A stretch of DNA of 64,000 nt from a bacterium (lineage in GTDB: Bacteria > Armatimonadota > Fimbriimonadia > Fimbriimonadales > Fimbriimonadaceae), in NCBI GenBank assembly GCA_027485645.1, contig JAIXQR010000007.1, positions 682,001 to 746,000 of the forward strand, given 5' to 3'. Shown here piece after piece: positions 9,378 through 21,563 of the stretch; positions within the stretch are counted from its first letter, which is position 1, and each line of letters starts with the position of its first letter. The notes under the pieces are model-generated. The model did not search any database. It was not told where the DNA came from and saw nothing but the letters and a program-made list of their open reading frames with translations. The translations under genes and the position numbers were made by a program.

Positions 9378-10457
9378 ATGACGCGTCGGATCGCAGTTCT
9401 CGCCGGAGACGGCATTGGCCCCGAAGTCACCGCCGAAGCGGTGAAGGTCCTCGAAGCCACCGGAAAGCAGTTTCATTTCCAATCCGCCCTGGTCGGCGGA
9501 GCTGCCTACGATGCGGTCGGGCACCCGTTGCCAGCTGAAACGTTAGAACTGTGCCGCAACTCGGACGCCGTGCTCCTCGGCGCCGTTGGCGGTCCGAAGT
9601 ACGACGCCATTCAGCCGCCATCCATGCGTCCAGAAGTTGGAGCGCTCCTTCCGTTGCGGCGCAAACTGAACCTATACGCAAACGTCCGCCCGGCAAAGGC
9701 GATGAAAGCGCTGCTCAACGCAAGCCCACTCAAAAGCAATCGGGGGCTCATCGACCTCGTCGTCATTCGCGAACTCACGGGAGGCATCTACTTTGCCGAG
9801 CCACGGGAGCGGCGAAATGAGGGCAACACCGCGGTGGACACCTGCATGTACCACCGGCACGAGATTGAGCGCATCACGCATCGCGCCTTTGCCATCGCCC
9901 GCCAGCGAAAGAACGAGATCGTTCACGTAGACAAAGCCAACGTTCTTGAAACCAGCCGGCTCTGGCGAGAAGTCGTGGACGAAATCGCGAAGGCAAACTC
10001 CGACGTCAAGGTCACCCACATGCTAGTGGACAACTGCGCCATGCAGCTGATTCGCGAACCGAGCCAGTTCGACGTGATCCTCACCGAAAACATGTTTGGC
10101 GACATCATCAGCGACGAAGCGTCCATGATCACTGGCTCTCTTGGCCTTTTGCCATCCGCGAGCCTGAGCGACCCGAAGGACGGTCAGGTCTTCGGACTTT
10201 ACGAACCGGTCCACGGCAGCGCCCCCGACATCGCGGGCCAGGGACGCGCCAACCCCATCGCCGCCATTCTGAGCGGCGCGCTGATGCTGCGCTACAGCTT
10301 CGAAGACGACGAGACGGCAACCCGAATTGAAACGGCGGTTGAACACGCGCTAGAAGCGGGCCTGCGAACCGCCGATGTCTTCGAGCACGGCTGCCGACTG
10401 GTGAGCACTTCCGAATTCGGGGATGCGGTTGTCTTTAAGCTAAAAGCGGCGGCCTAA
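9378..10457 (+). CDS. leuB: 3-isopropylmalate dehydrogenase LeuB
   Basis: Oxidatively decarboxylates 3-isopropylmalate with NAD+ in leucine biosynthesis. 359 aa, typical length. Landmarks: IAVLAGDGIGPEVTAEA at the N-terminus, LLPLRRKLNLYANVRP, the substrate loop VVIRELTGGIYFAEPR, HVDKANVLETSRLWREVV, the metal-binding stretch NMFGDIISDEASMITGSLGLLPSASL, and EPVHGSAPDIAGQGRANPIA. No other leucine genes are near, so the pathway is dispersed in this genome. The stop overlaps by a few bases the convergent protease-nuclease gene. Confidence 0.97.
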   Translation: MTRRIAVLAGDGIGPEVTAEAVKVLEATGKQFHFQSALVGGAAYDAVGHPLPAETLELCRNSDAVLLGAVGGPKYDAIQPPSMRPEVGALLPLRRKLNLYANVRPAKAMKALLNASPLKSNRGLIDLVVIRELTGGIYFAEPRERRNEGNTAVDTCMYHRHEIERITHRAFAIARQRKNEIVHVDKANVLETSRLWREVVDEIAKANSDVKVTHMLVDNCAMQLIREPSQFDVILTENMFGDIISDEASMITGSLGLLPSASLSDPKDGQVFGLYEPVHGSAPDIAGQGRANPIAAILSGALMLRYSFEDDETATRIETAVEHALEAGLRTADVFEHGCRLVSTSEFGDAVVFKLKAAA

Positions 10458-12373
10458 GCCTCGAACTCTGCCCCTGGGAAGATCTCCTTCAGGCGACTCT
10501 CCGTAAGCGCGAGGGTCGCCTTTCCACGATCGGCATCAAGCAACGGCCCGAAGTCAAGCGAAGTCGCGGTCGCGATCTCCGCGATGCTGACCTGGAAATC
10601 TTGAATTTTGTCGAGGACAAGCGACTCCTTCTTTACTGCGTCTGCGATGTCGTCAACGAACTTGGTCTGCCACTGCATGAAGCCGTAGCTGACCAACTGC
10701 CCGTTCTCCTCGTACGCAACCACCTTCCAAAACGCGACCGGGCACTTCACCCCGAGGATAACCGGGTCATCGAAACGGAGCACCGGGCCGGTGAAAACAA
10801 CGTACTTTCGGCCGGAGTTTCGGGCTGAGCTGAGAATGCCGTTTTCCAGCCGAAGCCAGGCTTTGCTGTTGAAGTCTTCGTGCTGCGGGCTACAGTTCGT
10901 CATGTAGAACGAGTCGTCGTTGCCCTGCACCGCTTCCCAATCTTCGTTGCCCCACACCGGGTCCTCGCGACGCACTAAGTGGCCGAAGGCGAACTTCGTA
11001 GCGTCGTAGACCTCAGGTCCGAGTTGGTACTGAAGGTCGATCCGTGGGTCGTACCACCACTTATCGGCTGCCGCCTCGAGTTGCGGAGCGCCAAGATTTT
11101 TCCAGTCTCGAAGCTTGCGGTCGATCTTGATCTTTCGCTGCTTGCCGCCATCAATGTTCACCACCGTATAGCGAGCGAGTTTTCGGCTCTTCGACATCAC
11201 CACCGAATAGTGCCGGTACTTCAGCTCGAAGCCCTGGCCATCCTTTCTCGGGGCCAAGTCAGACTGAATCCACTCCGGCATTTCTGGATGCGGCACCGAG
11301 ATTCCGTGCCCCAAGAAGTCAACGTCGTGACCATCCCGACCATCAAGATCGGCCTCGGGCCGGGGCTTGACTGCGGTTTTCGTGCCCTCGGTTGAGATTT
11401 CGCGAACGGCTTCTACGACCACTGCCTGCTTTCCGCGGACCGGTCGGCCGTTTCGGATTACGTCTGGATCGGTGATAAGCCGGTGGAGGGCTGGACCGTC
11501 GCCATCTACCGAGTTCCCTTTCTCCGTTTTGCCGTTCTTGATTGCGTCGATGATCTTGCTGATTCGAATGCCCTCGTTAGCGACCACCGCGGAACCGCGA
11601 TGCTGGATCGGCAACGTGAGAGATGCGTGATGAAGGGCGACTACCTGCCACTGGCGGTTGAACACTGGCGAGCCACTAGACCCTGGCTCGGTGTCGGTCG
11701 TGTAGTGCAAGAACGCCTGGACGCGCTGAACCAGCTCGCTGTTGAAAAGGCACAGCTCCTTCTCTCGACCGTTCGGGTGCTGCACGATGACCACCGGCTC
11801 ACCCTCCAGAATCTTGTCCGTTCGTGGCTCTAGCGGAAGCCAGCCGAGACTATCCACCCCTTCCCCAGTTATGGCGAAGATCGCAAAATCGAGATCGTCT
11901 TCACCCGAAATCGCGAACGGCTTGCTGAGATCAACCTTAAACTTGCGTCGGCTCGGCTTGATGTCGTCAAATCCAAATTCGTAGCCAAACTCCAGCAGTG
12001 ATTCGCGAGCTTTGTCGGTATTGGCAATCACATGTTGGTTGGTCATCACTACGCCAGGCGCGATCATGAAGCCCGAACCCATGGCTGCTCCGTCGACCAA
12101 GATTCGGCAAACACAGTCTGCCGCCGCGCGGCCGTAGTCTAGGAAGTTCACGCCTGCAAGATCCGTGCCACCAGAGATGGCCTCGACCCGACGGCCTTCG
12201 GCAACCGTAAGGTGCGCTACACGGTTCACCGCCGTCTGCAGCCCGGCTGCTCCAAGCACGCCAACCGTTTCAATCTCCGCCAGCCGCCCCTCTCGAACCT
12301 CGGTTTGCGACTCGTAAAGGTCCTTAAAACGTTTGACTCGCGCTTCGGCGGTTTCTGGCAGTTCGATTTTCAC
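10454..12373 (-). CDS. Trypsin-like serine protease fused to a NucA/EndoG-type DNA/RNA nuclease
   Basis: 639 aa with three parts. Residues 1-80 are a helical/unknown lead. Residues about 82-280 are a chymotrypsin/V8-fold protease with a full triad: His114 (MTNQHVIA), Asp162 (DDLDFAIFAI) and Ser235 (TEPGSSGSPVFN). Residues about 380-620 are a DNA/RNA non-specific endonuclease domain with His465 (FAFGHLVRREDPVWGN) and the metal-binding Asn502 in TNCSPQHEDFNSKAW. The usual DRGH Arg is replaced: the motif reads F-A-F-G-H. There is no signal peptide, so a nuclease of a normally secreted or organellar class would be made in the cytoplasm, perhaps held in check and released by its protease. It starts at GTG 12373, directly after a promoter-like stretch, and lies downstream of a K+ channel gene. 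The function is unknown; a self-activated conflict effector is my inference. Confidence 0.9.
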   Translation of the reverse strand: MKIELPETAEARVKRFKDLYESQTEVREGRLAEIETVGVLGAAGLQTAVNRVAHLTVAEGRRVEAISGGTDLAGVNFLDYGRAAADCVCRILVDGAAMGSGFMIAPGVVMTNQHVIANTDKARESLLEFGYEFGFDDIKPSRRKFKVDLSKPFAISGEDDLDFAIFAITGEGVDSLGWLPLEPRTDKILEGEPVVIVQHPNGREKELCLFNSELVQRVQAFLHYTTDTEPGSSGSPVFNRQWQVVALHHASLTLPIQHRGSAVVANEGIRISKIIDAIKNGKTEKGNSVDGDGPALHRLITDPDVIRNGRPVRGKQAVVVEAVREISTEGTKTAVKPRPEADLDGRDGHDVDFLGHGISVPHPEMPEWIQSDLAPRKDGQGFELKYRHYSVVMSKSRKLARYTVVNIDGGKQRKIKIDRKLRDWKNLGAPQLEAAADKWWYDPRIDLQYQLGPEVYDATKFAFGHLVRREDPVWGNEDWEAVQGNDDSFYMTNCSPQHEDFNSKAWLRLENGILSSARNSGRKYVVFTGPVLRFDDPVILGVKCPVAFWKVVAYEENGQLVSYGFMQWQTKFVDDIADAVKKESLVLDKIQDFQVSIAEIATATSLDFGPLLDADRGKATLALTESRLKEIFPGAEFEA

Positions 12374-12424: not shown

Positions 12425-13165
12425 TTAACGTTTCATTTCCGAAACGTCCGTCACGCTCGCCAGGGTCGCGATGAACCTTGCGATCACCACCGTGAGATAC
12501 AGCGTGCCGAGAAACCCTTGCGTCACCGCAATCCAGCGGGCATCCCCTTTCGGCGTAAAGTCGCCGTAGCCGATGGTGAGCTGAGTTACGAAGCTGAAGT
12601 AGAGCGCGTCCTGACCGCTGTTCATCGTGGTGCCAGATTGAACCACCGAAGCATTCGGCAGCAGCCAATAAAGCATCGCAAAGCAAAGCCCGGTCTCCAG
12701 GTAGTTGATGAAGCTCATCACGATGACCCTCTCCTTTGAGCCGATCACGTGTTCGGGTTGCGCCGCGCCCATCGCCACCGGAATGTACCGATCGAAAATC
12801 ACGACGCGCTGCGCGTATGCCGAAACATCCAAGATCCGCCAGATGGCAAAGGCGATCAGAACATTGCGGAGCGCGATGGCCGGCGGGTTCACCAGCTCGA
12901 GCCCAATCACCTCAATTGCCACGCAGCTCATCGTGAGGAAGTCAACGCGCAACCCGTGCCAGAGCCGCCGCTTCGTGTACTCCTCTGGCTTGTCCAAACG
13001 CGTCTCTTTCCGGCCCAGCAACAGGGTGCCGGGAAAAGTCATGAGGCACAGCAGCGCTGCGTACAAGGTCACGATGAGCGAGGCCGTGTGCGTTTCTCGC
13101 TTGTACCGCCAATAGCCAATGAGCGGATAGAAGCCCTCCTTCACAATCGTCAGCCAGGTGTTCAA
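12425..13165 (-). CDS. Potassium ion channel (2-TM pore domain with N-terminal membrane region)
   Basis: 246 aa. The selectivity filter TIGYGD (Thr197-Asp202) with a preceding pore helix (DALYFSFVTQL) and a following inner helix (GTLYLTVVIARFIATL) identifies a K+ channel pore. Upstream are more hydrophobic segments (about residues 28-50, 80-112 and 148-168), so it is larger than a minimal two-helix channel, and there is no obvious RCK domain. The start is a TTG at 13165, with TAGAAT nine nt upstream. It is 51 bp upstream of the protease-nuclease gene in the same direction; whether they work together is unknown. Channels do occur as effectors or sensors in some defence systems, but equally as housekeeping genes. 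Confidence 0.88.
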   Translation of the reverse strand: MNTWLTIVKEGFYPLIGYWRYKRETHTASLIVTLYAALLCLMTFPGTLLLGRKETRLDKPEEYTKRRLWHGLRVDFLTMSCVAIEVIGLELVNPPAIALRNVLIAFAIWRILDVSAYAQRVVIFDRYIPVAMGAAQPEHVIGSKERVIVMSFINYLETGLCFAMLYWLLPNASVVQSGTTMNSGQDALYFSFVTQLTIGYGDFTPKGDARWIAVTQGFLGTLYLTVVIARFIATLASVTDVSEMKR

Positions 13166-14048: not shown

Positions 14049-14099
14049 CTGGAGTGCGGCAGTTGGAGTTAAAAACGAAACGTAGCTCTAAGCTGCCGC
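14049..14099. repeat. Dispersed hairpin repeat 'CTGGAGTGCGGCAG', long variant
   Basis: Begins CTGGAGTGCGGCAGTT as in the copies after clpB (44685 and 44833). The left arm from 14056 pairs imperfectly with the right arm to 14099 around an A-rich loop. It sits just after a stop codon, as the other copies do. Confidence 0.55.
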
Positions 14100-14123
14100 C
14101 AAAACAAATCCGAACCACGAACG

Positions 14124-14153
14124 AATCCGAACTAATCCGAACTAATCCGAACT
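14124..14153. repeat. Three tandem copies of AATCCGAACT
   Basis: Three exact head-to-tail copies of a 10-bp unit, with a partial match just upstream (about 14106). It lies between the DUF4380-like gene and the first island gene; no function is evident. Confidence 0.7.
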
Positions 14154-14161
14154 AAGGATGG

Positions 14162-14500
14162 CTAATCCTTAGCCTTCCACGCGAACAACGTCATACATCC
14201 GACAAGGTAACTAGCTTGCTGCACCGGCGGAAGCACGTTGAGCAGTCCCTTTGGCAAGTTTTCTTTGACCGATAAAACAAGGCAACTTGCAAGACAAAGA
14301 ATGGCTGTGATTGCTAAAGCCTTGTTCCTAAATGCAGCTATAGATGTACTGGTTGATGCCAGCATAACAACCGCCGACACTATCACAACGGAATCGATCT
14401 GCGGCATGCTTGGACGCTCAAAAATCCGCGAGCCAATCCAGAGAACTAAGAACACCAATCCTCCGACAAGTCGTGCGCGCTCAGATACGGACTGTTTCAT
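14162..14500 (-). CDS. Small membrane protein (island gene)
   Basis: 112 aa, unrecognised. Four hydrophobic stretches (about residues 10-24, 37-57, 61-79 and 92-108) with a short charged N-terminus; likely a four-helix inner-membrane protein. It is the last gene of the minus-strand island and stops next to a 10-bp tandem repeat. No partner is coupled to it. Confidence 0.6.
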   Translation of the reverse strand: MKQSVSERARLVGGLVFLVLWIGSRIFERPSMPQIDSVVIVSAVVMLASTSTSIAAFRNKALAITAILCLASCLVLSVKENLPKGLLNVLPPVQQASYLVGCMTLFAWKAKD

Positions 14501-14607
14501 CGGCTTTTCGTCCTCAGCTCTGTTAGTCTATCACGTGGCAAACCCAGCTTTTGCAGGACCGGCCAAAAGTCGCAGTCAATCCGGTCGCATCGAAACATTA
14601 GTTGAAC

Positions 14608-14934
14608 TCAAAGGATATTGATGATAGTGTCCACTACATCACTTTGACGAGGAAGCTCCACCACCACAACATCCGGGAGCCCAGCTTCCACTGCGTTAAA
14701 CGTCGGCGTCACGGGGCCGGGAAAGGCCAGCACCACCATACGTCCCTTGCTCTTACACTGGCGGCACACTTGATAGCCATCCATTATTGGCATCATTGCT
14801 GCCACGATGGCTAAATCCCACGGCTCCGTCAACAAGCGTTCCAATAGCTTGTCACCTTCGAAAACTTGCTCAAAAACCACACCGTCGCGTGGTGTGAGTT
14901 TATAATCGTACAAAAGACCCTCAATACTGCACAA
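14608..14934 (-). CDS. Degenerate response-regulator receiver-like protein
   Basis: 108 aa. The middle (DLAIVAAMMPIMDGYQVCRQ) closely follows the receiver-domain pattern D-L-x-x-x-D-x-x-M-P-x-M-D-G, but the phospho-acceptor Asp is replaced by Ala, and the N-terminal acidic pair is missing. MVVLAF followed by PGLPDVVVVELPR corresponds to the later strands. If real it is a pseudo-receiver that cannot be phosphorylated in the normal way. The start overlaps the upstream gene by 14 bp, the same overlap length as in the duplicated island pair, suggesting coupling. The receiver assignment is from motif reading only. Confidence 0.55.
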   Translation of the reverse strand: MCSIEGLLYDYKLTPRDGVVFEQVFEGDKLLERLLTEPWDLAIVAAMMPIMDGYQVCRQCKSKGRMVVLAFPGPVTPTFNAVEAGLPDVVVVELPRQSDVVDTIINIL

Positions 14935-15379
14935 CTCTCTTCACTCGATCGTGTCCATCAGGCTTCTGGCCCTCTAAAGAAGCCGCGGTAAGAAGTTCTG
15001 TAGCGAACGCTCTCAGATCATCTTTCAGCGCATAACCGTTCAACTGTTGACCGTTAGCCATTGAGACTTGGACATGCAAGGTATTGGGAACCTTACAATT
15101 CCGTATGGTCCAAACGAAGTCTCGAAGTCCCGCTTGAAGGCAAACAGAATCTTTAAAGGCTACGGGCCAGGCGTCATGCCAATCGGCATTTGTAGCATCA
15201 ATCACCGCTTCTGCAATCCTCGTCAGAGCAAAAGCCCCGCTCGAACCGAGTTCGTAGGCCAGGCACTCGGTTTTTTCATATTCAGTCCAACAGACACTGA
15301 TTTCTTGACCATCAACCTGGAAACTGATGATCGGCCCTCTGTCCGTGAATAGCTTCTTGAGCTTCAAGGTGGCACTCAT
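14921..15379 (-). CDS. Hypothetical protein (island gene)
   Basis: 152 aa, unrecognised, no membrane segment or signal peptide; cytoplasmic, mixed alpha/beta by eye, moderately Cys-rich (five Cys). A weak ribosome-binding site (GAGAAG) precedes the ATG. It overlaps the pseudo-receiver gene downstream by 14 bp. The general look (150 aa, soluble, near small membrane proteins) is like immunity proteins of polymorphic toxin loci, but I see no toxin and no family motif. Confidence 0.62.
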   Translation of the reverse strand: MSATLKLKKLFTDRGPIISFQVDGQEISVCWTEYEKTECLAYELGSSGAFALTRIAEAVIDATNADWHDAWPVAFKDSVCLQAGLRDFVWTIRNCKVPNTLHVQVSMANGQQLNGYALKDDLRAFATELLTAASLEGQKPDGHDRVKRVVQY

Positions 15380-15444
15380 ATGTTCTTCTCAATCATCTGT
15401 GATAGGACCGCAAACTTCATCGAAAATCGAATCTATAAGTTTGC

Positions 15445-15609
15445 CTACATCTTTGGAAACGACTTCGATTCCAAAGCCCCCAAAAGCAACATCATGAGCA
15501 CTAACAACCAAGGACGTAGTTCTTTTGAAGCATGGAAGAAACTCAGATACAATAGCCCGGCAATAGCACCTATAACCGCAACATAACACAAAAGCCCTTT
15601 AACGTTCAT
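15445..15609 (-). CDS. Tiny membrane protein (54 aa), coupled
   Basis: 54 aa: MNVKGLLCYVAVIGAIAGL, then a short charged turn (SFFHASKELRP) and WLLVLMMLLLGALESKSF: two membrane helices. Its ATG at 15609 overlaps the TGA of the upstream gene as ATGA, which is the main reason to believe it, since this overlap is used throughout the window. A different-frame ORF on the same strand (15389-15589) has no such support. Confidence 0.5.
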   Translation of the reverse strand: MNVKGLLCYVAVIGAIAGLLYLSFFHASKELRPWLLVLMMLLLGALESKSFPKM

Positions 15610-16052
15610 CGTGGATTCCTCAACTGGTGAAGCGCGGCTTCAGTTTCGGCCGGATGGGCCAGTCGACAATCCAGCACTACCCAACGACTGTTCACGTGAA
15701 AATACCAAAGCTCGCCCCCAGGCAGCGGATGCATGCCGGTCCGTCGAACCTTTTCGGCCGGCTGGGTCGTGCCATCCGAGAGCAACAAAGAGAAGGAGTT
15801 CTCGTCCCGAATAAGGTTGTAACGCATGTCCCGACATAGCCTCCAACACCCAAATCCGAGGTGCGCAAAGTACGTTCCAGACATCACAAAAAACGCCAGC
15901 ACGACGTAGCCTAAGAGATCTTCGATCGGCATTCGGGTGAACAAGATTTGCAAGACGAAAAACACCGAACCTACGACCAGTAGAAGAAAAAATGTGCCGC
16001 AGATCCCAAGGAAGCGACGCGTGTACGGACGAAACTCCATCCTCTGCTTCAT
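15606..16052 (-). CDS. Two-helix membrane protein with soluble C-domain (island gene)
   Basis: 148 aa. A basic N-terminus, two membrane helices (about residues 14-36 and 44-64), then a cytoplasmic or periplasmic beta-rich domain (ENSFSLLLSDGTTQPAEKVRR ... YFHVNSRWVVLDCRL). The layout recalls YcxB-like / DUF-type immunity membrane proteins, but I cannot name a family. The gene starts 20 bp downstream of repeat copy A and is followed by the overlapping 54-aa membrane protein. Confidence 0.68.
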   Translation of the reverse strand: MKQRMEFRPYTRRFLGICGTFFLLLVVGSVFFVLQILFTRMPIEDLLGYVVLAFFVMSGTYFAHLGFGCWRLCRDMRYNLIRDENSFSLLLSDGTTQPAEKVRRTGMHPLPGGELWYFHVNSRWVVLDCRLAHPAETEAALHQLRNPR

Positions 16053-16070
16053 AAGCTCGACTTTTCACGC

Positions 16071-16112
16071 AACAAACATGCCGTCATGCTCCGTGACTAT
16101 CGTACACGGGAA
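16071..16112 (-). repeat. Island repeat, copy A (truncated: lead only)
   Basis: Carries the lead part shared with copies B-D (AAACATGCCGTCATGCTC followed by a CGTACAC motif) but lacks the 12-bp hairpin. It lies between two island genes, just upstream of the start at 16052. Confidence 0.7.
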
Positions 16113-16189
16113 TCAAAACGGAAATCGTTTGTCCAGACTAAAGGACCTCAAAATCTTAGAGTATGAGAAGCAAATTTCCTACCAGAAAG

Positions 16190-16759
16190 TTACGTCTTGA
16201 TACAGCTTTGAAAATCTGCGGCCGCGCTTGCAGATGCTGCAAAACACAAGAACTCGCCACCTGTCCCATCCATTGCTCCCGACACTCTTAGCGAAGTCGC
16301 ATCCAAACGAAAAACCCGCCCAGTTTGCACCTCGTTAGAACAAGCTTGAGCCAAAGCGGAACCCGGCGGAATCCAGGACGTAGCTTCTAGTTGATCACGA
16401 ACAGCTTCGAATTCTGGGCCAAAGCAGACTTGGAAATAGCCGACATCGGTAGCCGCGCTTCTAGGCAACCAAGCTTCAGATTCATCCCAAATCCAATCCG
16501 CGCAAAGAATCGCTTGTGAATCGGCCGGGAGCTTTACGGGCGCGTTATCAAGTCCAGGAACGACAACGCGCAAAATGAGTGCGGGCCCTAATCTTCTCAA
16601 TAGGCAACCGAGAAGATTGCGGACCTCATCCATCACCAAATCGTCCCACGGGACTTCCTGAACGGCTGCCCGGCCAATCCATGCATGGCTCCAATCGCCC
16701 AGATCATAGACCCCAACTGATCTTAGGTCCTCAAAACTCGGATTAGGCACCCATTGCAT
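16190..16759 (-). CDS. Hypothetical protein (island gene)
   Basis: 189 aa, soluble, unrecognised. Aromatic- and acidic-rich N-terminus (SHAWIGRAAVQEVPWDDLVMDEV), then a predicted alpha/beta body ending in an Ala-rich Cys-containing tail. A strong Shine-Dalgarno (GAGGAG, 7 nt from the ATG) supports the start at 16759. Repeat copy B lies directly upstream and copy A downstream, so the gene occupies one complete unit of the island. Confidence 0.68.
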   Translation of the reverse strand: MQWVPNPSFEDLRSVGVYDLGDWSHAWIGRAAVQEVPWDDLVMDEVRNLLGCLLRRLGPALILRVVVPGLDNAPVKLPADSQAILCADWIWDESEAWLPRSAATDVGYFQVCFGPEFEAVRDQLEATSWIPPGSALAQACSNEVQTGRVFRLDATSLRVSGAMDGTGGEFLCFAASASAAADFQSCIKT

Positions 16760-16821
16760 TCTTCACTCCTCAAGTCTACGTCCGACGTGCTATGAAAGGG
16801 CCACCAGACCAACAACGCAAT

Positions 16822-16912
16822 AAACATGCCGTCATGCTCTGCGCGCATAGTACACAAAAAACTGTTTGAGCCCCTTCTCCGTTCCGACGGAGAAGGGGTC
16901 GGGGGATGAGGA
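16822..16912 (-). repeat. Island repeat, copy B (lead plus hairpin)
   Basis: Lead AAACATGCCGTCATGCTC, then a perfect 12-bp stem CCCCTTCTCCGT (16871-16882) / ACGGAGAAGGGG (16887-16898) with loop TCCG, then TCGGGGGATGAGGA. The tail diverges from copies C-E. It is located between the stop at 16924 and the start at 16759. Confidence 0.85.
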
Positions 16913-16923
16913 TCCATTTCGAA

Positions 16924-17205
16924 TCACTCCATCTCCTCACCTTGCATGCAGCTCGCGAGAAATCGAAGCAGGTACGTTCTACGCTGGACGACAAGAGCCT
17001 CCACCATCCGCTCAAACTCGGCTTCATTCACCCGCTCGACACGATGATGCACCAGAATCGATCCGAAGGCCGCCCTCCCTTGGTAAACAATGTGGACGTC
17101 CATTGTCTCATTCCCGTCCGCCACGGATGCTTCCCCCGTAGCCAATAGGTGACCAAATAGTCGAGTGCGGTAGGGCCCAATATGCTCGACCTCGCTCATC
17201 TTCAA
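16924..17205 (-). CDS. Small hypothetical protein (island gene)
   Basis: Up to 93 aa; the TTG at 17205 opens the frame, but the ATG two codons later (17199, MSEVEHIGPYRTRLFGHLL) is the more likely start. Soluble, Glu/Arg-rich; a strand-rich first half and a C-terminal helix (EAEFERMVEALVVQRRTYLLRFLAS). It is separated from the upstream 224-aa gene by only 32 bp, so the two are probably co-transcribed. No family recognised. Confidence 0.58.
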   Translation of the reverse strand: MKMSEVEHIGPYRTRLFGHLLATGEASVADGNETMDVHIVYQGRAAFGSILVHHRVERVNEAEFERMVEALVVQRRTYLLRFLASCMQGEEME

Positions 17206-17237
17206 GAAATGCCCCTAACCTCTTGTATCAATTCAGC

Positions 17238-17912
17238 TTAGGCGGGCCGATCTGGCCGTCTCAAATTCTGCCACCGCTCAATGTTCTCCGCAAGCGATAA
17301 CGGCGGCAGAATCTGCCCGTCTTGCGGCGACCAATTTGTCCCGAGAGCCCTGTTCTCCGCAATCTCTGCCGAGGTCGTCACCAAACTTCCGACTGGCAAT
17401 GGTGGCAACTCCAGATCATTTCGATGCCATAAGAATGCGGTGTTAACGCTAAACTCGAAAACGTCGGCAAACACCGCAAAACTGCACCCCTCTATCCCCG
17501 CGGCGTAGTTGGCGAAGCTGGAAGCTGAACAGTGCTCGAGTGTTAGGGGGGCCTGATATAAGCCATTTAGCCAAGAATCACGTGTAGATCGCCGCGCAAA
17601 CAAGAGGGCTATCGGCGTCGTGGATATGATCTTCAAATACTCTATACCCGCTACTATCGAAGGCACATCGTTAAAGCTCCAAGTCTGCTGAAAAGCTGAA
17701 GCGTCGTTAACTAGAATCTGCACACCTTCTGACTCCACTTGAGGTACGCCACGTAGTTCCGGAGTCTCCAGCTCAGTCAACATCAGCCCGCGCAGTTTCG
17801 GTTGGACTTGCTCAAGAAGTTGCAGAAACGCCACAAACGGCGACGGCATTTGCCCTACCTCCAACGCAGCACCGTGCCAACCTGGCAGAACGATCACTTC
17901 TTGGTTGTTCAT
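17238..17912 (-). CDS. Hypothetical protein (island gene)
   Basis: 224 aa, soluble, unrecognised. A hydrophobic core but no membrane segment; alternating strand/helix pattern, with several Asn/Asp-rich turns (VNDASAFQQTWSFNDVPSIVAG, SVNTAFLWHRNDLELPPLP). An AAGGGG stretch 12 nt before the ATG may serve as ribosome-binding site. It lies 59 bp from the upstream PKIF-type gene. There is no palindromic repeat on its 5' side, so it appears to share a unit with its neighbours. Confidence 0.66.
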   Translation of the reverse strand: MNNQEVIVLPGWHGAALEVGQMPSPFVAFLQLLEQVQPKLRGLMLTELETPELRGVPQVESEGVQILVNDASAFQQTWSFNDVPSIVAGIEYLKIISTTPIALLFARRSTRDSWLNGLYQAPLTLEHCSASSFANYAAGIEGCSFAVFADVFEFSVNTAFLWHRNDLELPPLPVGSLVTTSAEIAENRALGTNWSPQDGQILPPLSLAENIERWQNLRRPDRPA

Positions 17913-17971
17913 CGTTTCGTCAACCCCTTCTTAGTTTCTAGAATGTCTAACGGCAGTACTTGGTGTCCACC

Positions 17972-18370
17972 TTACCGAAGCTCGGGCCATTGCATGGCCA
18001 TATCTTCCCGCGTCACTGGCCATCGCCGTGCCTCCGCAGTTGCCGATTGTTTAATCTTCTGATGAACTTCCTCGAACGTCGCGGCATCAAGATATCTTAA
18101 CTCCAGAGCCATTTTGTAAAGGGAGGTTTCACCTCCCTTCATCCTCCGAAAAAGTGCGCCCGAATCTGCAGGCGCGGCCATTCCCTGTGTTGAAGTCAGA
18201 AGCCAAGCGTTTTCCACGTACCAATAGCGAATGATGAATCTCAAACGTTCGCCGTCCGGCTGTTTCTTGAGTAGCCGAACCACGTGCCTATACCGGGAGT
18301 TCATCGTAGCCGAACTGAACACAACCTGAGCCAGCGCTCCAGGCAATCGAAAGATCTTAGGAATTGTCAT
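17972..18370 (-). CDS. PKIF-type hypothetical protein, copy 1 of duplicated pair
   Basis: 132 aa from ATG 18370. The start is fixed by alignment to its paralogue at 18954-19352: both begin M-x-x-PKIFRLPG-L-Q and share MNSRY, RFIIR-WY-E, LFRRMKGGE and W-E-L near the end. The frame is open further upstream, but the extra residues have no counterpart. It overlaps the upstream membrane-protein gene by 14 bp exactly as the second copy does. Soluble; function unknown. The two proteins are clearly homologous but diverged at many positions, so the duplication is not recent. Confidence 0.75.
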   Translation of the reverse strand: MTIPKIFRLPGALAQVVFSSATMNSRYRHVVRLLKKQPDGERLRFIIRYWYVENAWLLTSTQGMAAPADSGALFRRMKGGETSLYKMALELRYLDAATFEEVHQKIKQSATAEARRWPVTREDMAMQWPELR

Positions 18371-18707
18371 TTCCAGAACTCGTACTCTTAGGTTCCATCT
18401 CAGGCTCAGGCTTGTCCCAGCTCCTAGGCTTCGACTTAAAATATTGTACGAAAACCACGGCAAGGATAGTTTGAACCAGGAAGCTCAACCCCACACCGCG
18501 AAAGCCAGAGTAAATCCCCGATTCGTAAACCCATAGGACCATGAAAGAACACGCGTGGGCTCCAATTACTCGTCCATCTTTCGTAAGCGTGCCAAGCCCA
18601 ATCATGAACAGGGTCTGCACGCCGAATTGGATGACTCGAAAACAGTTTCTTTGCTCCATGAGCACTTCGCTTCCAATCTCTGCAACGAGAGAAAGTACGT
18701 CCATCAT
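18357..18707 (-). CDS. Membrane protein with ESGIYSGFRGVG motif, copy 1
   Basis: About 116 aa from the ATG at 18707 (MMDVLSLVAEIGSE). The frame continues upstream to 18797, but the paralogue at 19339-19710 starts at about this point, and copy 1 has ATC where copy 2 has its first ATG. Three hydrophobic segments; a conserved loop WV-ESGIYSGFRGVGL-FLVQ precedes the last helix, followed by a basic and Pro-rich tail. Its 3' end overlaps the PKIF gene by 14 bp. Probably an inner-membrane partner of the PKIF protein (inference from coupled duplication). Confidence 0.68.
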   Translation of the reverse strand: MMDVLSLVAEIGSEVLMEQRNCFRVIQFGVQTLFMIGLGTLTKDGRVIGAHACSFMVLWVYESGIYSGFRGVGLSFLVQTILAVVFVQYFKSKPRSWDKPEPEMEPKSTSSGNDNS

Positions 18708-18815
18708 CGCTGAGAAAGCGACCCCGATTTCGCTGAAACACCGACGGTATCGTCCGTCTGAACGTTTTTCACCGGGAGTGAAATCAAGCGAAAACAACCC
18801 ACCGCATCAAGTACC

Positions 18816-18935
18816 AAACATGCCGCCATGCTCCGTGACCATCGTACACGAGAAACCGTTTGAGCCCCTTCTCCGTTCCGACGGAGAAGGGGTCGGGGGA
18901 TGAGGACACGCGCAGCCAAATATCGGACAATCAAC
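18816..18935 (-). repeat. Island repeat, copy C (full length)
   Basis: Lead (AAACATGCCGCCATGCTCC, CGTACACGAGAAACC), 12-bp stem at 18865-18876 / 18881-18892, the TCGGGGGATGAGGA segment, and a tail GACACGCGCAGCC that matches copy E. It separates the two copies of the membrane + PKIF pair. Confidence 0.88.
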
Positions 18936-18953
18936 GAACCAAAAGCTTCCAAC

Positions 18954-19352
18954 TCAGTGAAGCTCGGACCATCGCAGAGCTAAATACGTTTGCGCCACTG
19001 GCCACTTCCATGACTCCGCTATTACCGCTTGCTGAACGTTCTGACGGATTTCCTCTGGAGTCGGAGCATCAAGGGCTCTTAACTCCAGAGCAATATCCGC
19101 TATGGAGGCTTCACCTCCCTTCATCCGCCGAAAGAGTGCATTCGAATTTGAAGGCACGGCTGATCCTGATGTTAAGACCAGCAGCCAACTGCTTTCCAAG
19201 TACCAAAAGCGAATGATGAAGCCGAGATGCTCGCCGTCTGACTGACTCCCCAAGTCCCGAACCACACGCTTATACCGGGAGTTCATCGTAGTGGAACGGA
19301 ACAAAGCCTGAACCAGTTCGCCAGGTAAGCGGAAGATCTTAGGAACTCTCAT
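18954..19352 (-). CDS. PKIF-type hypothetical protein, copy 2
   Basis: 132 aa starting MRVPKIFRLPGELVQALF, homologous over its whole length to the protein at 17972-18370. The ATG overlaps the upstream membrane-protein gene by 14 bp. Soluble, helical C-terminus. Unknown function; the strict co-duplication with the membrane gene argues that the two products act together. Confidence 0.76.
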   Translation of the reverse strand: MRVPKIFRLPGELVQALFRSTTMNSRYKRVVRDLGSQSDGEHLGFIIRFWYLESSWLLVLTSGSAVPSNSNALFRRMKGGEASIADIALELRALDAPTPEEIRQNVQQAVIAESWKWPVAQTYLALRWSELH

Positions 19353-19710
19353 TTGCCGAACTCCCGCGCTGCGGTTCTAATTCAGGTCCAGTCTGGATCG
19401 CAGTTCTTGGCCTCGACCTGAAAAATCGCACCAGGACAACGGCAATGAGAAGTTGCACTAGAAAACCCAGCCCCACTCCGCGAAATCCCGAGTAAATCCC
19501 CGATTCGTCAACCCATAGGAACATGACTGAAGGCATGGAATATATCAGCGCTCTGTCTTCTTTCGTAAACTTAATGATCCCAGCACCGATCACGGCCTGA
19601 AGGACTATTTGCAAAAATCGAATGTAATCTATCTGCCCTTCGGGCGCCTCGCTTCCAATCTCCGCAACAAGAGAAAGTAAGTCCATCACCGCTGAGAAAG
19701 CGCTCCCCAT
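19339..19710 (-). CDS. Membrane protein with ESGIYSGFRGVG motif, copy 2
   Basis: Up to 123 aa (MGSAFSAVMDLLSLVAEIGSE); homologous to 18357-18707. The in-frame GTG/ATG pair seven to eight residues in matches the start I chose for copy 1, so either could be used. Membrane segments at about residues 32-48, 62-72 and 85-103, with the same loop DESGIYSGFRGVGLGFLVQ. Repeat copy D lies immediately upstream. Confidence 0.7.
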   Translation of the reverse strand: MGSAFSAVMDLLSLVAEIGSEAPEGQIDYIRFLQIVLQAVIGAGIIKFTKEDRALIYSMPSVMFLWVDESGIYSGFRGVGLGFLVQLLIAVVLVRFFRSRPRTAIQTGPELEPQRGSSANESS

Positions 19711-19788
19711 TTCGCTGAAACTCCGACAGCATCGTCCGCCCCGGCCCGGAGCCTAATCAAGCTAAACCAAACCTCCCCATCAAGCAAC

Positions 19789-19905
19789 AAACATTCCGTC
19801 ATGTTTCCGCAACTATCGTACACGAGAAAATCCGTGTGAGCCCCTTCTCCGTTCCGACGGAGAAGGGGTCGGGGGATGAGGACCCGCCCAACCGAAACTC
19901 GGACG
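19789..19905 (-). repeat. Island repeat, copy D (full length)
   Basis: Lead AAACATTCCGTCATG and CGTACACGAGAAA, the same 12-bp stem (19841-19852 / 19857-19868), TCGGGGGATGAGGA, and a tail related to C and E (CCGAAACTCGGACG). It lies between the FGE-like gene stop and the start of membrane copy 2. Confidence 0.86.
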
Positions 19906-19938
19906 TTCGTCCTATCGGTAGTGTCCCAACAAGCCCGC

Positions 19939-20709
19939 TCACAAGTCGAAGGCCACTCTAAACCCAGCTGGTTCTAAGTTATGGCAGCGCATACCGACCA
20001 TCGCTCCGGATAGATAGTCCTCATTCATCTCAATTCGCAGGCCCGAATAGAAGATTTTGTCCCGGCGTCCCATGGGTTTGATGACTGGGCCTCTGAGCCA
20101 ATAATCCGGACCATAGGCTCCTTGCACGAGTTCACGAACATTGCCCCATAGCCCTTTAACGCCCTGAGAGCTGCATGCCAGATCGGGGGAATCAACCGGA
20201 ATTACGTCCGGCAGAATGTCTTTCACGGTTCCTTGCGTAAGGCTTCGACTAGCTTGATACCCAAGAAAACCGCTGCGTTGACGCCCCCTGAGCAAAAACT
20301 CAAACTCTTCTTCTCGAAGCAAACGACCGCCAACAAGGGAACAAAACGTAATGGCCTCAGCATAGGAAACTCCTAGCACTGGCATGTCATCGGAGTAGCC
20401 CGAAATATCGAAAGTGCTATGCCAGTACTGTTTATGTTCGTCTGGGATCGACAGAGAGGATTCAAGGTATATCCTGCGAAAACTCTCCTTCGTAATTGCG
20501 CAACGCATGACTCGAAATGGGCGGATGCGAGCCCGTCTCGGCGGGCAGTCGCCTAGAATTTCAGCCGCAATCTTCTCACCAAATTGGTCATTGATCGTGT
20601 CCATATCGGGAGAGTGAATTCCGAGGCGTACAGCGGCGGGCCGCTCGATCGTAACCACGTTCGCGGTGGAACAAAATTGACTTACATAGTCTTGCCAATC
20701 TGACTTCAA
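19939..20709 (-). CDS. FGE-sulfatase (SUMF1) fold protein, probably non-catalytic
   Basis: 256 aa from a TTG at 20709 that overlaps the TGA of an upstream 43-aa ORF (TTGA). The second half follows the formylglycine-generating-enzyme / EgtB-like fold: MPVLGVSYAEAITFCSLVGGRL, REEEFEFLLRG, GLWGNVRELVQGAYG, and a terminal GFRVAFDL. The pair of active-site cysteines used by true FGEs is not seen near the C-terminus (only one Cys, MRCHN), so sulfatase activation is unlikely. The fold is also used as a binding or scaffold module. The N-terminal 90 residues are unassigned. Confidence 0.75.
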   Translation of the reverse strand: MKSDWQDYVSQFCSTANVVTIERPAAVRLGIHSPDMDTINDQFGEKIAAEILGDCPPRRARIRPFRVMRCAITKESFRRIYLESSLSIPDEHKQYWHSTFDISGYSDDMPVLGVSYAEAITFCSLVGGRLLREEEFEFLLRGRQRSGFLGYQASRSLTQGTVKDILPDVIPVDSPDLACSSQGVKGLWGNVRELVQGAYGPDYWLRGPVIKPMGRRDKIFYSGLRIEMNEDYLSGAMVGMRCHNLEPAGFRVAFDL

Positions 20710-20837
20710 TTAAAGACACCTAAAGTTCCTAGTACCTCGGCACAAGAAGCGCGAATCAAAAGCCAATCCGACTTCTTTCGGATCAATTCCGTACTGATAA
20801 CCTGTCCCGCGCTATGGCGCAGCAAAAAATCCCTCAT
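20706..20837 (-). CDS. Possible small ORF (43 aa) coupled to the FGE-like gene
   Basis: MRDFLLRHSAGQVISTELIR continuing to a TGA that overlaps the TTG of the FGE-like gene. The overlap type is the same as murA/mreB. The N-terminal end abuts repeat copy E. It is either a real small cytoplasmic protein or a coupling leader; nothing in the sequence shows function. Confidence 0.35.
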   Translation of the reverse strand: MRDFLLRHSAGQVISTELIRKKSDWLLIRASCAEVLGTLGVFN

Positions 20838-20840
20838 CTT

Positions 20841-20945
20841 CCCGTCACCATCATACGCACGAAACCGTTTGAGCCCCTTCTCCGTTCCGACGGAGAAGGG
20901 GTCGGGGGATGAGGACACGCGCAGCCGAAATTCGGACGATCAACC
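20841..20945 (-). repeat. Island repeat, copy E
   Basis: Weak lead, then ACCGTTTGAG, the 12-bp stem (20874-20885 / 20890-20901), TCGGGGGATGAGGA and the GACACGCGCAGCC tail shared with copy C. It is the right-most copy and lies between the 51-aa membrane gene and the FGE unit. Confidence 0.85.
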
Positions 20946-20992
20946 TGCCTGAACCATTCATAACGGCAGCCAACGAACCTCCCAGACGCAGG

Positions 20993-21148
20993 TCATCTCC
21001 AACCGACCCGCGGCAAGAAAATTCTGACCCCTAACTCCACAAGCGCAATGAGAAAGACAAAGTTGACCACGACCCAGAACAACTGGCGCTTGGGATGGTT
21101 ATCCAAAACACCAATGAGCACCAAGATTGCAAAGAACAAGTAAATCAT
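20993..21148 (-). CDS. Tiny two-helix membrane protein (51 aa)
   Basis: Reads MIYLFFAILVLIGVL, a basic turn DNHPKRQ, LFWVVVNFVFLIALVELG, then VRIFLPRVGWR. It is a clean two-helix hairpin with positively charged turn and tail. It lies 18 bp after the gene at 21167-21550, on the same strand, with repeat copy E directly downstream. Together with the 54-aa protein at 15445-15609 it shows that very small membrane proteins recur in the island. Confidence 0.52.
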   Translation of the reverse strand: MIYLFFAILVLIGVLDNHPKRQLFWVVVNFVFLIALVELGVRIFLPRVGWR

Positions 21149-21166
21149 CGGTCACCGCATCATCAT

Positions 21167-21550
21167 CTAACCAAACGAAAGAACCTTGTCGCCTCGTCCA
21201 ACCCAGTCTTCTAGCTCCACGACATCCACAATTCCTCCTCCGCCAACATCGTCATATATGTAGACCAAGGATCCTGTCAACAGCCTAATCACGGTCTGCA
21301 CCACTCTTTCAGCAAACGTTTCTATATCAGGGCAACCACCAATCATATAGAAATCGTGCATGTACCCGAACCTGGAGTGCAACTCGACATAGCCATTAAA
21401 TCGCACGACGATACCTTCCGCTGATTTGCGTGGCGACACCACCAGATCACCATTCGTTTCATGACTAAGCTCAGCCAATTCCAACAGGTCTGCCGACCCC
21501 AAAAGCCGATCACGGATGAACTGAAACTCCTCGGCCTCGTCATGTTGCAT
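21167..21550 (-). CDS. Hypothetical protein (island gene)
   Basis: About 127 aa, acidic, soluble, unrecognised. MQHDEAEEFQFIRDRLLGSADLL, then strands and VYIYDDVGGGGIVDVVELEDWVG near the end. The start at ATG 21550 is favoured over the GTG two codons upstream because a TAGGAT box ends exactly 7 nt before it. The first gene of the island in transcription order. Confidence 0.65.
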   Translation of the reverse strand: MQHDEAEEFQFIRDRLLGSADLLELAELSHETNGDLVVSPRKSAEGIVVRFNGYVELHSRFGYMHDFYMIGGCPDIETFAERVVQTVIRLLTGSLVYIYDDVGGGGIVDVVELEDWVGRGDKVLSFG

Positions 21551-21557
21551 CTTCACA

Positions 21558-21563
21558 ATCCTA
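21558..21563 (-). promoter_or_regulatory. -10 box TAGGAT, 7 nt before ATG 21550
   Basis: On the minus strand TAGGAT, seven bases, ATG. Leaderless-type promoter and probably the promoter of the first island transcript. The remaining bases up to 21665 show nothing else. Confidence 0.4.

What the first reader, a model, noticed from the sequence alone, without database searches (positions are those of the whole stretch)
14049..21563. Island of unrecognised small minus-strand genes in repeat-separated units
Seventeen or so genes of 43-256 codons, all on one strand, few with known domains, mixing soluble 90-220-aa proteins and two- to four-helix membrane proteins. They fall into units bounded by a palindromic repeat found between a stop and the next start (copies A-E), like cassettes. 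The base composition by eye is more AT-rich than in flanking genes. No integrase, transposase or toxin is visible. It could be an array of immunity or lineage-specific genes that grows by repeat-mediated duplication.
Basis: partly seen in the sequence, partly recalled or inferred. Interest (0 to 1): 0.7.

Follow-up and report, generated by a model that had tools for sequence, protein, structure and literature searches.

The report
Tipless Rhs-derived orphan immunity gene array
The island looks like the leftovers of a bacterial toxin locus (Rhs): every repeat that separates its small genes carries a broken scrap of the toxin's core gene, so the small genes are most likely antidote (immunity) genes kept after the toxins were lost, a known kind of array in a bacterial group where I found no report of one.

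Summary
The island is real: about 15 co-oriented minus-strand ORFs, G+C 0.513 against 0.575-0.579 in the flanks, four identical 28-nt palindromes. The key point was missed at first reading. Right after each palindrome, and at a fifth boundary without one, lies a 44-105-nt frameshifted scrap of an Rhs/YD-repeat core gene (nhmmer E 3.7e-12 to 8.3e-5; next best hit in 64 kb 0.86). A sister locus in the same genome (contig C4) holds the same palindrome, a larger Rhs core with toxin tip, a candidate immunity gene and a second truncated core scrap. Between this genome and its closest relative, tip plus immunity gene are exchanged there. In that relative the island's own flanks abut an intact Rhs gene and its companion module. 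Related Armatimonadota carry full-length Rhs genes followed by tandem orphan core-tip-immunity units. Best reading: an orphan Rhs immunity array in which tips and the 3' core were deleted and immunity genes kept. One two-gene unit is tandemly duplicated; the other units are unrelated, so displacement rather than repeat-driven duplication explains most of the array. Immunity function is inferred: no homologue was found next to a toxin except a shared FGE-like domain. The palindrome's exclusive link to these islands remains unexplained.

The parts
20803..20857 (-). Rhs core scrap 1 (degenerate, frameshifted), before the FGE-like gene
   Evidence: nhmmer E 8.3e-5 with a model built only from copies outside the window; alignment
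19743..19823 (-). Rhs core scrap 2, before the 123/132-aa gene pair
   Evidence: nhmmer E 3.7e-12; tblastn VYDSCGNMTECLLLDG..., 50% over 40 aa, E 7e-6
18764..18849 (-). Rhs core scrap 3, before the second gene pair
   Evidence: nhmmer E 1.4e-9
16751..16855 (-). Rhs core scrap 4, before the 189-aa gene
   Evidence: nhmmer E 2e-6
16064..16107 (-). Rhs core scrap 5 (no palindrome), before the 148-aa gene
   Evidence: nhmmer E 6.5e-9; 94% over 49 nt to G014 Rhs core
20874..20901 (-). palindrome copy 1 (12-bp stem, 4-nt loop)
   Evidence: folds at -22.3 kcal/mol
19841..19868 (-). palindrome copy 2
18865..18892 (-). palindrome copy 3
16871..16898 (-). palindrome copy 4
21167..21556 (-). 129-aa soluble candidate immunity protein; no homologue in 290 other genomes of the phylum
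   Evidence: low-confidence model, no fold match
20993..21148 (-). 51-aa membrane protein
19939..20709 (-). 256-aa FGE-sulfatase-like protein; another FGE-like protein follows an Rhs orphan tip in genome G005 (L094:7658-8257)
19339..19710 (-). 123-aa membrane protein, first gene of duplicated unit copy 1
18954..19352 (-). 132-aa soluble protein, second gene of unit copy 1
18357..18728 (-). membrane protein, paralogue of the 123-aa gene (51% aa), unit copy 2; listed ORF begins at 18797
17972..18370 (-). soluble protein, paralogue of the 132-aa gene (58% aa), unit copy 2
17238..17912 (-). 224-aa soluble candidate immunity protein, no homologue found
16924..17205 (-). 93-aa soluble protein
16190..16759 (-). 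189-aa candidate immunity protein
15606..16052 (-). 148-aa membrane-anchored protein
15445..15609 (-). 54-aa membrane protein
14921..15379 (-). 152-aa soluble protein, no homologue found
14608..14934 (-). 108-aa receiver-domain-like protein (Response_reg, below cut-off)
14162..14500 (-). 112-aa protein with three hydrophobic segments

Best explanation
The island is an orphan immunity array left by an Rhs (YD-repeat) polymorphic-toxin locus. Ancestrally, each unit was an Rhs core fragment, a toxin tip and its immunity gene(s), pushed downstream when a new tip-immunity pair recombined onto the Rhs gene through the shared core. In the window the 3' part of the core (past about MRQWGTH, including the DPxGK tip junction), all tips and the full-length Rhs gene are gone. 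The immunity genes remain, each unit headed by a 44-105-nt core scrap and, in four of five, a hairpin. Shown: Rhs scraps at all five boundaries; no 3' core or complete Rhs; low G+C; sharp non-syntenic block; intact Rhs at the flanks in the nearest relative; tip/immunity exchange at the sister locus; coding constraint on the duplicated pair. Inferred: that the genes encode immunity proteins, that they still protect against toxins from kin, and the order of events.
For: (1) A DNA profile from four Rhs core copies outside the window hits the 64-kb window five times, all at island unit boundaries on the gene strand (3.7e-12, 1.4e-9, 6.5e-9, 2e-6, 8.3e-5), next 0.86. The reversed window's best is 0.26 and 30 block-shuffled islands give at best 0.031. 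(2) Sister locus C4: palindrome plus Rhs core scoring as TIGR03696 Rhs_assc_core (3.5e-20) plus tip plus candidate immunity gene, then a truncated core scrap followed directly by a 78-aa gene, the layout seen in the window. (3) G000 versus G014 at C4: core (89%) and truncated scrap (84%) conserved, tip and immunity gene between them unrelated; a 123-aa gene present in one only. (4) Window flanks in G014: the left flank abuts an open Rhs ORF of 1293 aa plus a 143-aa gene, the right flank abuts the IscU-like/glycosyltransferase module that accompanies Rhs in G000 as well. (5) Relatives carry full-length Rhs followed by orphan units 1-2 kb apart; window scraps are 0.75-2.0 kb apart. (6) An FGE-like protein directly follows an Rhs orphan tip in G005, matching the FGE-like island gene. 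(7) Paralogous pairs differ at 27-31% of bases without indel or stop; neutral chance of an open frame 0.019 and 0.035.
Against: No island gene has a detectable homologue beside a toxin tip, apart from the FGE domain; one search scored few candidates per genome. No known immunity family was hit. No intact Rhs of this core type is in the genome; its three other Rhs loci have diverged cores. The scraps are short. dN/dS of the paralogues (0.5-1.05) is compatible with relaxed as well as diversifying selection. The 224- and 93-aa genes (17.9-16.9 kb) and the genes below 15.6 kb have no scrap of their own.
Confidence: 0.78

Rival explanations
1. Rhs graveyard: the block is non-functional debris of a decayed Rhs locus, and the open frames survive by recency or chance.
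For: Core scraps are frameshifted, tips and Rhs are lost, dN/dS of the paralogues is near 0.5-1, and nothing is conserved in the relative.
Against: About 15 frames are open on one strand, many overlapping by 4-14 nt or separated by short gaps. The paralogous pairs have no indels or stops at 27-31% divergence (neutral chance 0.019 and 0.035), whereas the scraps beside them do have indels.
Confidence: 0.12
2. Some of the genes are displaced toxin tips rather than immunity proteins.
For: In intact orphan units the tip lies between core and immunity gene; no island gene has a tested function.
Against: Tips are fused in frame after the DPxGK motif; here the 3' core with that motif is missing at all five boundaries, and the first gene has its own start, out of frame with the scrap. 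At the C4 locus the same truncated scrap precedes a 78-aa membrane protein conserved in both genomes.
Confidence: 0.06
3. An integron-like or recombinase-built cassette array (including Bacteroidales rAID-type), with the palindrome as recombination site.
For: Co-oriented short genes and conserved intergenic motif, as in rAID (PMC12247911). The palindrome block is 46-47 nt identical between units that are about 72% identical.
Against: No recombinase found. No paired GTTRRRY/RYYYAAC core sites at the palindromes. The palindrome is missing at one of five boundaries, where the Rhs scrap is present.
Confidence: 0.03
4. An ordinary lineage-specific operon into which palindromes and Rhs fragments were inserted later.
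For: No homologues of most proteins; one strand.
Against: Scraps lie at unit heads in the same orientation as the genes. Sister locus C4 shows the same order with a real core, tip and candidate immunity gene. The relative has an Rhs gene at the same flank.
Confidence: 0.03

Closest known systems
Displaced Rhs C-terminal tips ('silent cassettes', orphan rhs-CT/rhsI modules; Jackson 2009 PMC2935791, Poole 2011 PMC3150448)
   Same: Core fragments of variable length ahead of small genes, low G+C trough, degenerate frameshifted cores, unrelated units at one locus, exchange of tip plus immunity between close relatives (at the C4 sister locus).
   Different: In the window no full-length rhs precedes the array, the tips are gone and the core scraps are truncated before the tip junction. 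A lineage-specific hairpin sits at the start of four of five scraps.
Orphan immunity gene arrays at T6SS effector clusters of Vibrio cholerae (Kirchberger 2017, PMC5361080)
   Same: Arrays of immunity-like genes without effectors, explained by successive displacement of effectors with retention of immunity genes.
   Different: There the array follows a working effector cluster and its genes match immunity genes of other strains; here neither holds. The scaffold is Rhs, and one unit is duplicated, whereas those authors argue against duplication as the source of their arrays.
[quoted passage not shown]
   Same: Co-oriented short genes (about 50-260 codons here, 100-300 there) and conserved intergenic sequence motifs, no effectors.
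   Different: No tyrosine recombinase found. The intergenic motif is explained as Rhs core debris plus a hairpin.

Membership tests
Orphan Rhs-CT/immunity (displaced tip) array | Rhs core fragments at the head of units | tested here: met
   Five nhmmer hits, all at unit boundaries
Orphan Rhs-CT/immunity (displaced tip) array | Full-length rhs gene of the same core type upstream | tested here: not met
   No Rhs in the window; genome-wide Rhs cores lie on C4 and at C1:872-911 kb, other core types apart from the C4:62 kb fragment. Relative G014 has an Rhs gene of another core type at this flank
Orphan Rhs-CT/immunity (displaced tip) array | Dissociated toxin tips after the DPxGL-type motif | tested here: not met
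   3' core and DPxGK absent at all five boundaries; present at sister locus C4
Orphan Rhs-CT/immunity (displaced tip) array | Low G+C trough over tips and immunity genes | tested here: met
   0.513 versus 0.575-0.579
Orphan immunity gene array | Genes homologous to immunity genes paired with effectors elsewhere | tested here: inconclusive
   No homologues among 291 genomes of the phylum for three proteins; limited-depth search for 14 proteins in 113 genomes; FGE-like domain found beside an Rhs tip in G005
Orphan immunity gene array | Neutralises a toxin | not testable with these tools
   Needs co-expression assay
rAID | Tyrosine recombinase in the cluster | tested here: not met
   No integrase domain in the island and flanking proteins scanned
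rAID | Co-oriented short genes with conserved intergenic motif | tested here: met
Integron cassette array | attC-like paired core sites GTTRRRY / RYYYAAC at cassette joints | tested here: not met
   No pairs within the palindrome neighbourhoods; one stray GTTRRRY

The most novel reading that the evidence does not exclude
The hairpin is not a passenger but a lineage-specific junction element of Rhs loci. It sits at a fixed point of the core, is kept identical across units that have diverged by about 28%, and provides homology or a structural break point at which immunity cassettes are trimmed of their toxin and gained or lost: a recombinase-free cassette system for immunity genes.
Probability: 0.12. 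Interest if true: 0.65.

Novelty: new variant of a known kind. Interest (0 to 1): 0.48.

Why it matters
It explains an opaque 'island of unknown genes' by debris that annotation pipelines do not report, and offers a general trick: use short frameshifted Rhs core scraps to find orphan immunity arrays whose toxins are gone. I found no paper holding both Fimbriimonas and Rhs, and only one, unrelated in title, holding both Armatimonad* and polymorphic toxin, so this phylum looks like an unexplored source of toxin and immunity families. If the genes protect, the array records past encounters with kin toxins.

Tried and rejected
Close-homologue scan of 84,980 genomes with the 132-aa protein: 57 pattern matches, none confirmed. 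Pfam, NCBIfam and PADLOC on the island proteins: nothing usable beyond FGE-sulfatase and a weak receiver domain; the PADLOC hit PDC-M45C (E 0.0037, 30 residues) is too short to use. AlphaFold: the 129-aa protein gave pLDDT 64 without a PDB match at E <= 0.001; the 132-aa protein gave pLDDT 40, discarded. Integron-type sites: absent. RAYT as mobiliser of the palindrome: two Y1_Tnp genes exist at C3:245.6-247.1 kb but no palindrome copy lies near them; a Y1_Tnp gene lies inside the Rhs array of G003; not pursued. Third island at C3:144.5-147.3 kb has the palindrome and small genes but no Rhs core hit, so I do not claim it as an Rhs array.
Full report
What is in the window. Between 14162 and 21556 lie about 15 co-oriented minus-strand ORFs of 51-256 aa, at G+C 0.513 against 0.579 and 0.575 in the flanks. 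Only the 256-aa protein has a clear Pfam domain (FGE-sulfatase, 1.9e-12); the 108-aa protein has a weak receiver-domain match below cut-off. Four identical palindromes (CCCCTTCTCCGTCGGAACGGAGAAGGGG; -22.3 kcal/mol as RNA) head four of the units. One unit of two overlapping genes (membrane plus soluble) is present twice in tandem, about 72% identical in DNA, 51% and 58% in protein.

Where it is. The genome is a 3.19-Mb, 7-contig assembly. The closest relative held, G014, has flank proteins 84-90% identical and matches the MAG CAMCWC01, labelled Chthonomonas calidirosea ME-09jul19-71: its contig CAMCWC010000004.1 is 201,464 bases long, as is G014:C4. Other loci with the same core type are mostly Fimbriimonadaceae and other Armatimonadota. 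The window genome's own name is not given, so its placement in that phylum is inferred.

The repeat is Rhs debris. A second place in the genome, C4:61.5-64.5 kb, has the same palindrome, followed by a reading frame ...NMTACLLRDGAGGFTLTSRRAYDPWGAMRQWGTHPSG...[36 protein letters not shown]...DPSGK, an Rhs associated core (TIGR03696, 3.5e-20), with a C-terminal tip and a 117-aa membrane protein behind it, then a truncated 120-nt core scrap followed by a 78-aa membrane protein. The conserved stretch after each window palindrome is the same core DNA with frameshifts (alignment). A profile built only from the four outside copies (two in this genome, two in G014) hits the whole 64-kb window five times, all on the gene strand at unit boundaries: 19823-19743 (3.7e-12), 18849-18764 (1.4e-9), 16107-16064 (6.5e-9), 16855-16751 (2e-6), 20857-20803 (8.3e-5); the next hit has E 0.86. 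The reversed window's best is 0.26, and of 30 shuffled islands the best is 0.031. The scraps end near MRQWGTH; the later core with the DPxGK tip junction has no match in the island, so tips were removed with the 3' core.

Comparative evidence. At C4 the two genomes agree on both sides, but between the long core (89% identical) and the truncated scrap plus 78-aa gene (84%) the tip and immunity candidate are unrelated: L016 8380-9250 against L031 8741-9576. A 123-aa gene (L016:10115-10486) between repeat copies is present here and absent in G014. At the window site similarity to G014 stops exactly at 14049 and 21648. In G014 the left flank runs into an Rhs ORF of 1293 aa (open at the contig end) with a 143-aa gene behind it, and the right flank into an IscU-like gene and a glycosyltransferase (those two names are my reading of the sequences, not a family search). 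In this genome that module accompanies two other Rhs genes at contig ends. The two G014 contigs overlap by 29 nt inside the Rhs N-terminus, so their adjacency is likely, not proven. Among 20 genomes of the genus, 19 have Rhs core matches, many with a 1300-1480-aa gene plus shorter ones on the same contig. Three that I read (G019, G005, G003) show full-length Rhs, small gene, orphan core-tip, small gene, in tandem. Of 34 examined core loci, nearly all Armatimonadota, 22 hold two or more cores, up to five, mostly about 1-2 kb apart. In G005 an FGE-like protein starts 6 nt behind an orphan Rhs tip, the same domain as the 256-aa island gene behind scrap 1.

Are the genes alive? The paralogous pairs differ at 108/399 and 116/372 positions with no indel and no stop; neutral substitution alone would leave the frame open with probability 0.019 and 0.035. 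dN/dS estimates lie between 0.5 and 1.05, which fits weak or diversifying selection. The neighbouring scraps have indels.

The palindrome. With one mismatch allowed it occurs 8 times in this genome and 3 times in G014 and in none of 18 other genomes of the genus. In this genome 4 copies are in the window island, 3 at the C4 Rhs locus, 1 at a third small-gene island (C3:147.2 kb) that has no Rhs core hit; all 3 G014 copies are at the C4 Rhs locus. Between the two tandem units a block of about 46 nt around it is identical although the units are about 72% alike, so it was inserted late, is converted between copies, or is constrained; I cannot tell which. It lacks paired integron core sites.

Interpretation. 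The best-supported reading is an orphan immunity array of an Rhs locus, formed by repeated displacement of tip-immunity pairs through the shared core, as proposed for enterobacterial rhs (PMC2935791) and described for orphan rhs-CT/rhsI modules (PMC3150448), followed by deletion of tips and of the Rhs gene with retention of immunity genes, as in the Vibrio immunity arrays (PMC5361080). The Rhs origin is shown by sequence; the immunity function is inferred from position, size, membrane/soluble mix and lineage restriction. No homologues were found in 291 genomes for the 152-, 224- and 129-aa proteins.

Membership. As an orphan Rhs array it meets core scraps and G+C trough but fails on full-length Rhs and on tips, so I call it a tipless variant, not a typical member. 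It shares two of three rAID features (PMC12247911) but no recombinase was found.

Noticed in passing
L093:288-7157 and L094:10245-16903: Armatimonadota Rhs genes sit in a three-gene operon: a secreted-looking protein of about 480-490 aa, a TPR/Peptidase_C39-like protein, then Rhs. It may be a delivery or maturation set.
   Followed up: partly
L097:7809-12951 and L098:10031-15416 (contig ends C1 and C4): Two similar modules of Rhs, an IscU-like protein and a glycosyltransferase; contigs of the assembly break inside them. The Rhs on C1 has a tip with an HELMH metallopeptidase-like motif.
   Followed up: partly
14118-14157: 10-bp tandem repeat (GGATTAGTTC) at the island's low-coordinate edge, with similar copies at about nine other genome sites, one beside the C3 small-gene island.
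   Followed up: no
L017:6497-9232: Third small-gene island (C3:144.5-147.2 kb, G+C 0.513) with one palindrome and the tandem repeat but no Rhs core hit.
   Followed up: partly
10454-12373: Fusion of a trypsin-like protease domain and a DNA/RNA non-specific endonuclease domain, conserved in G014; next to a potassium-channel-like protein (12425-13165).
   Followed up: no
L095:7721-8239: IS200-like (Y1_Tnp, RAYT-type) transposase gene inside the Rhs array of G003.
   Followed up: no
19939-20709: The FGE-like protein ends in GFRVAFDL; from memory, catalytic FGEs have a cysteine at that place (GFRC), so it may be a non-enzymatic scaffold.
   Followed up: no
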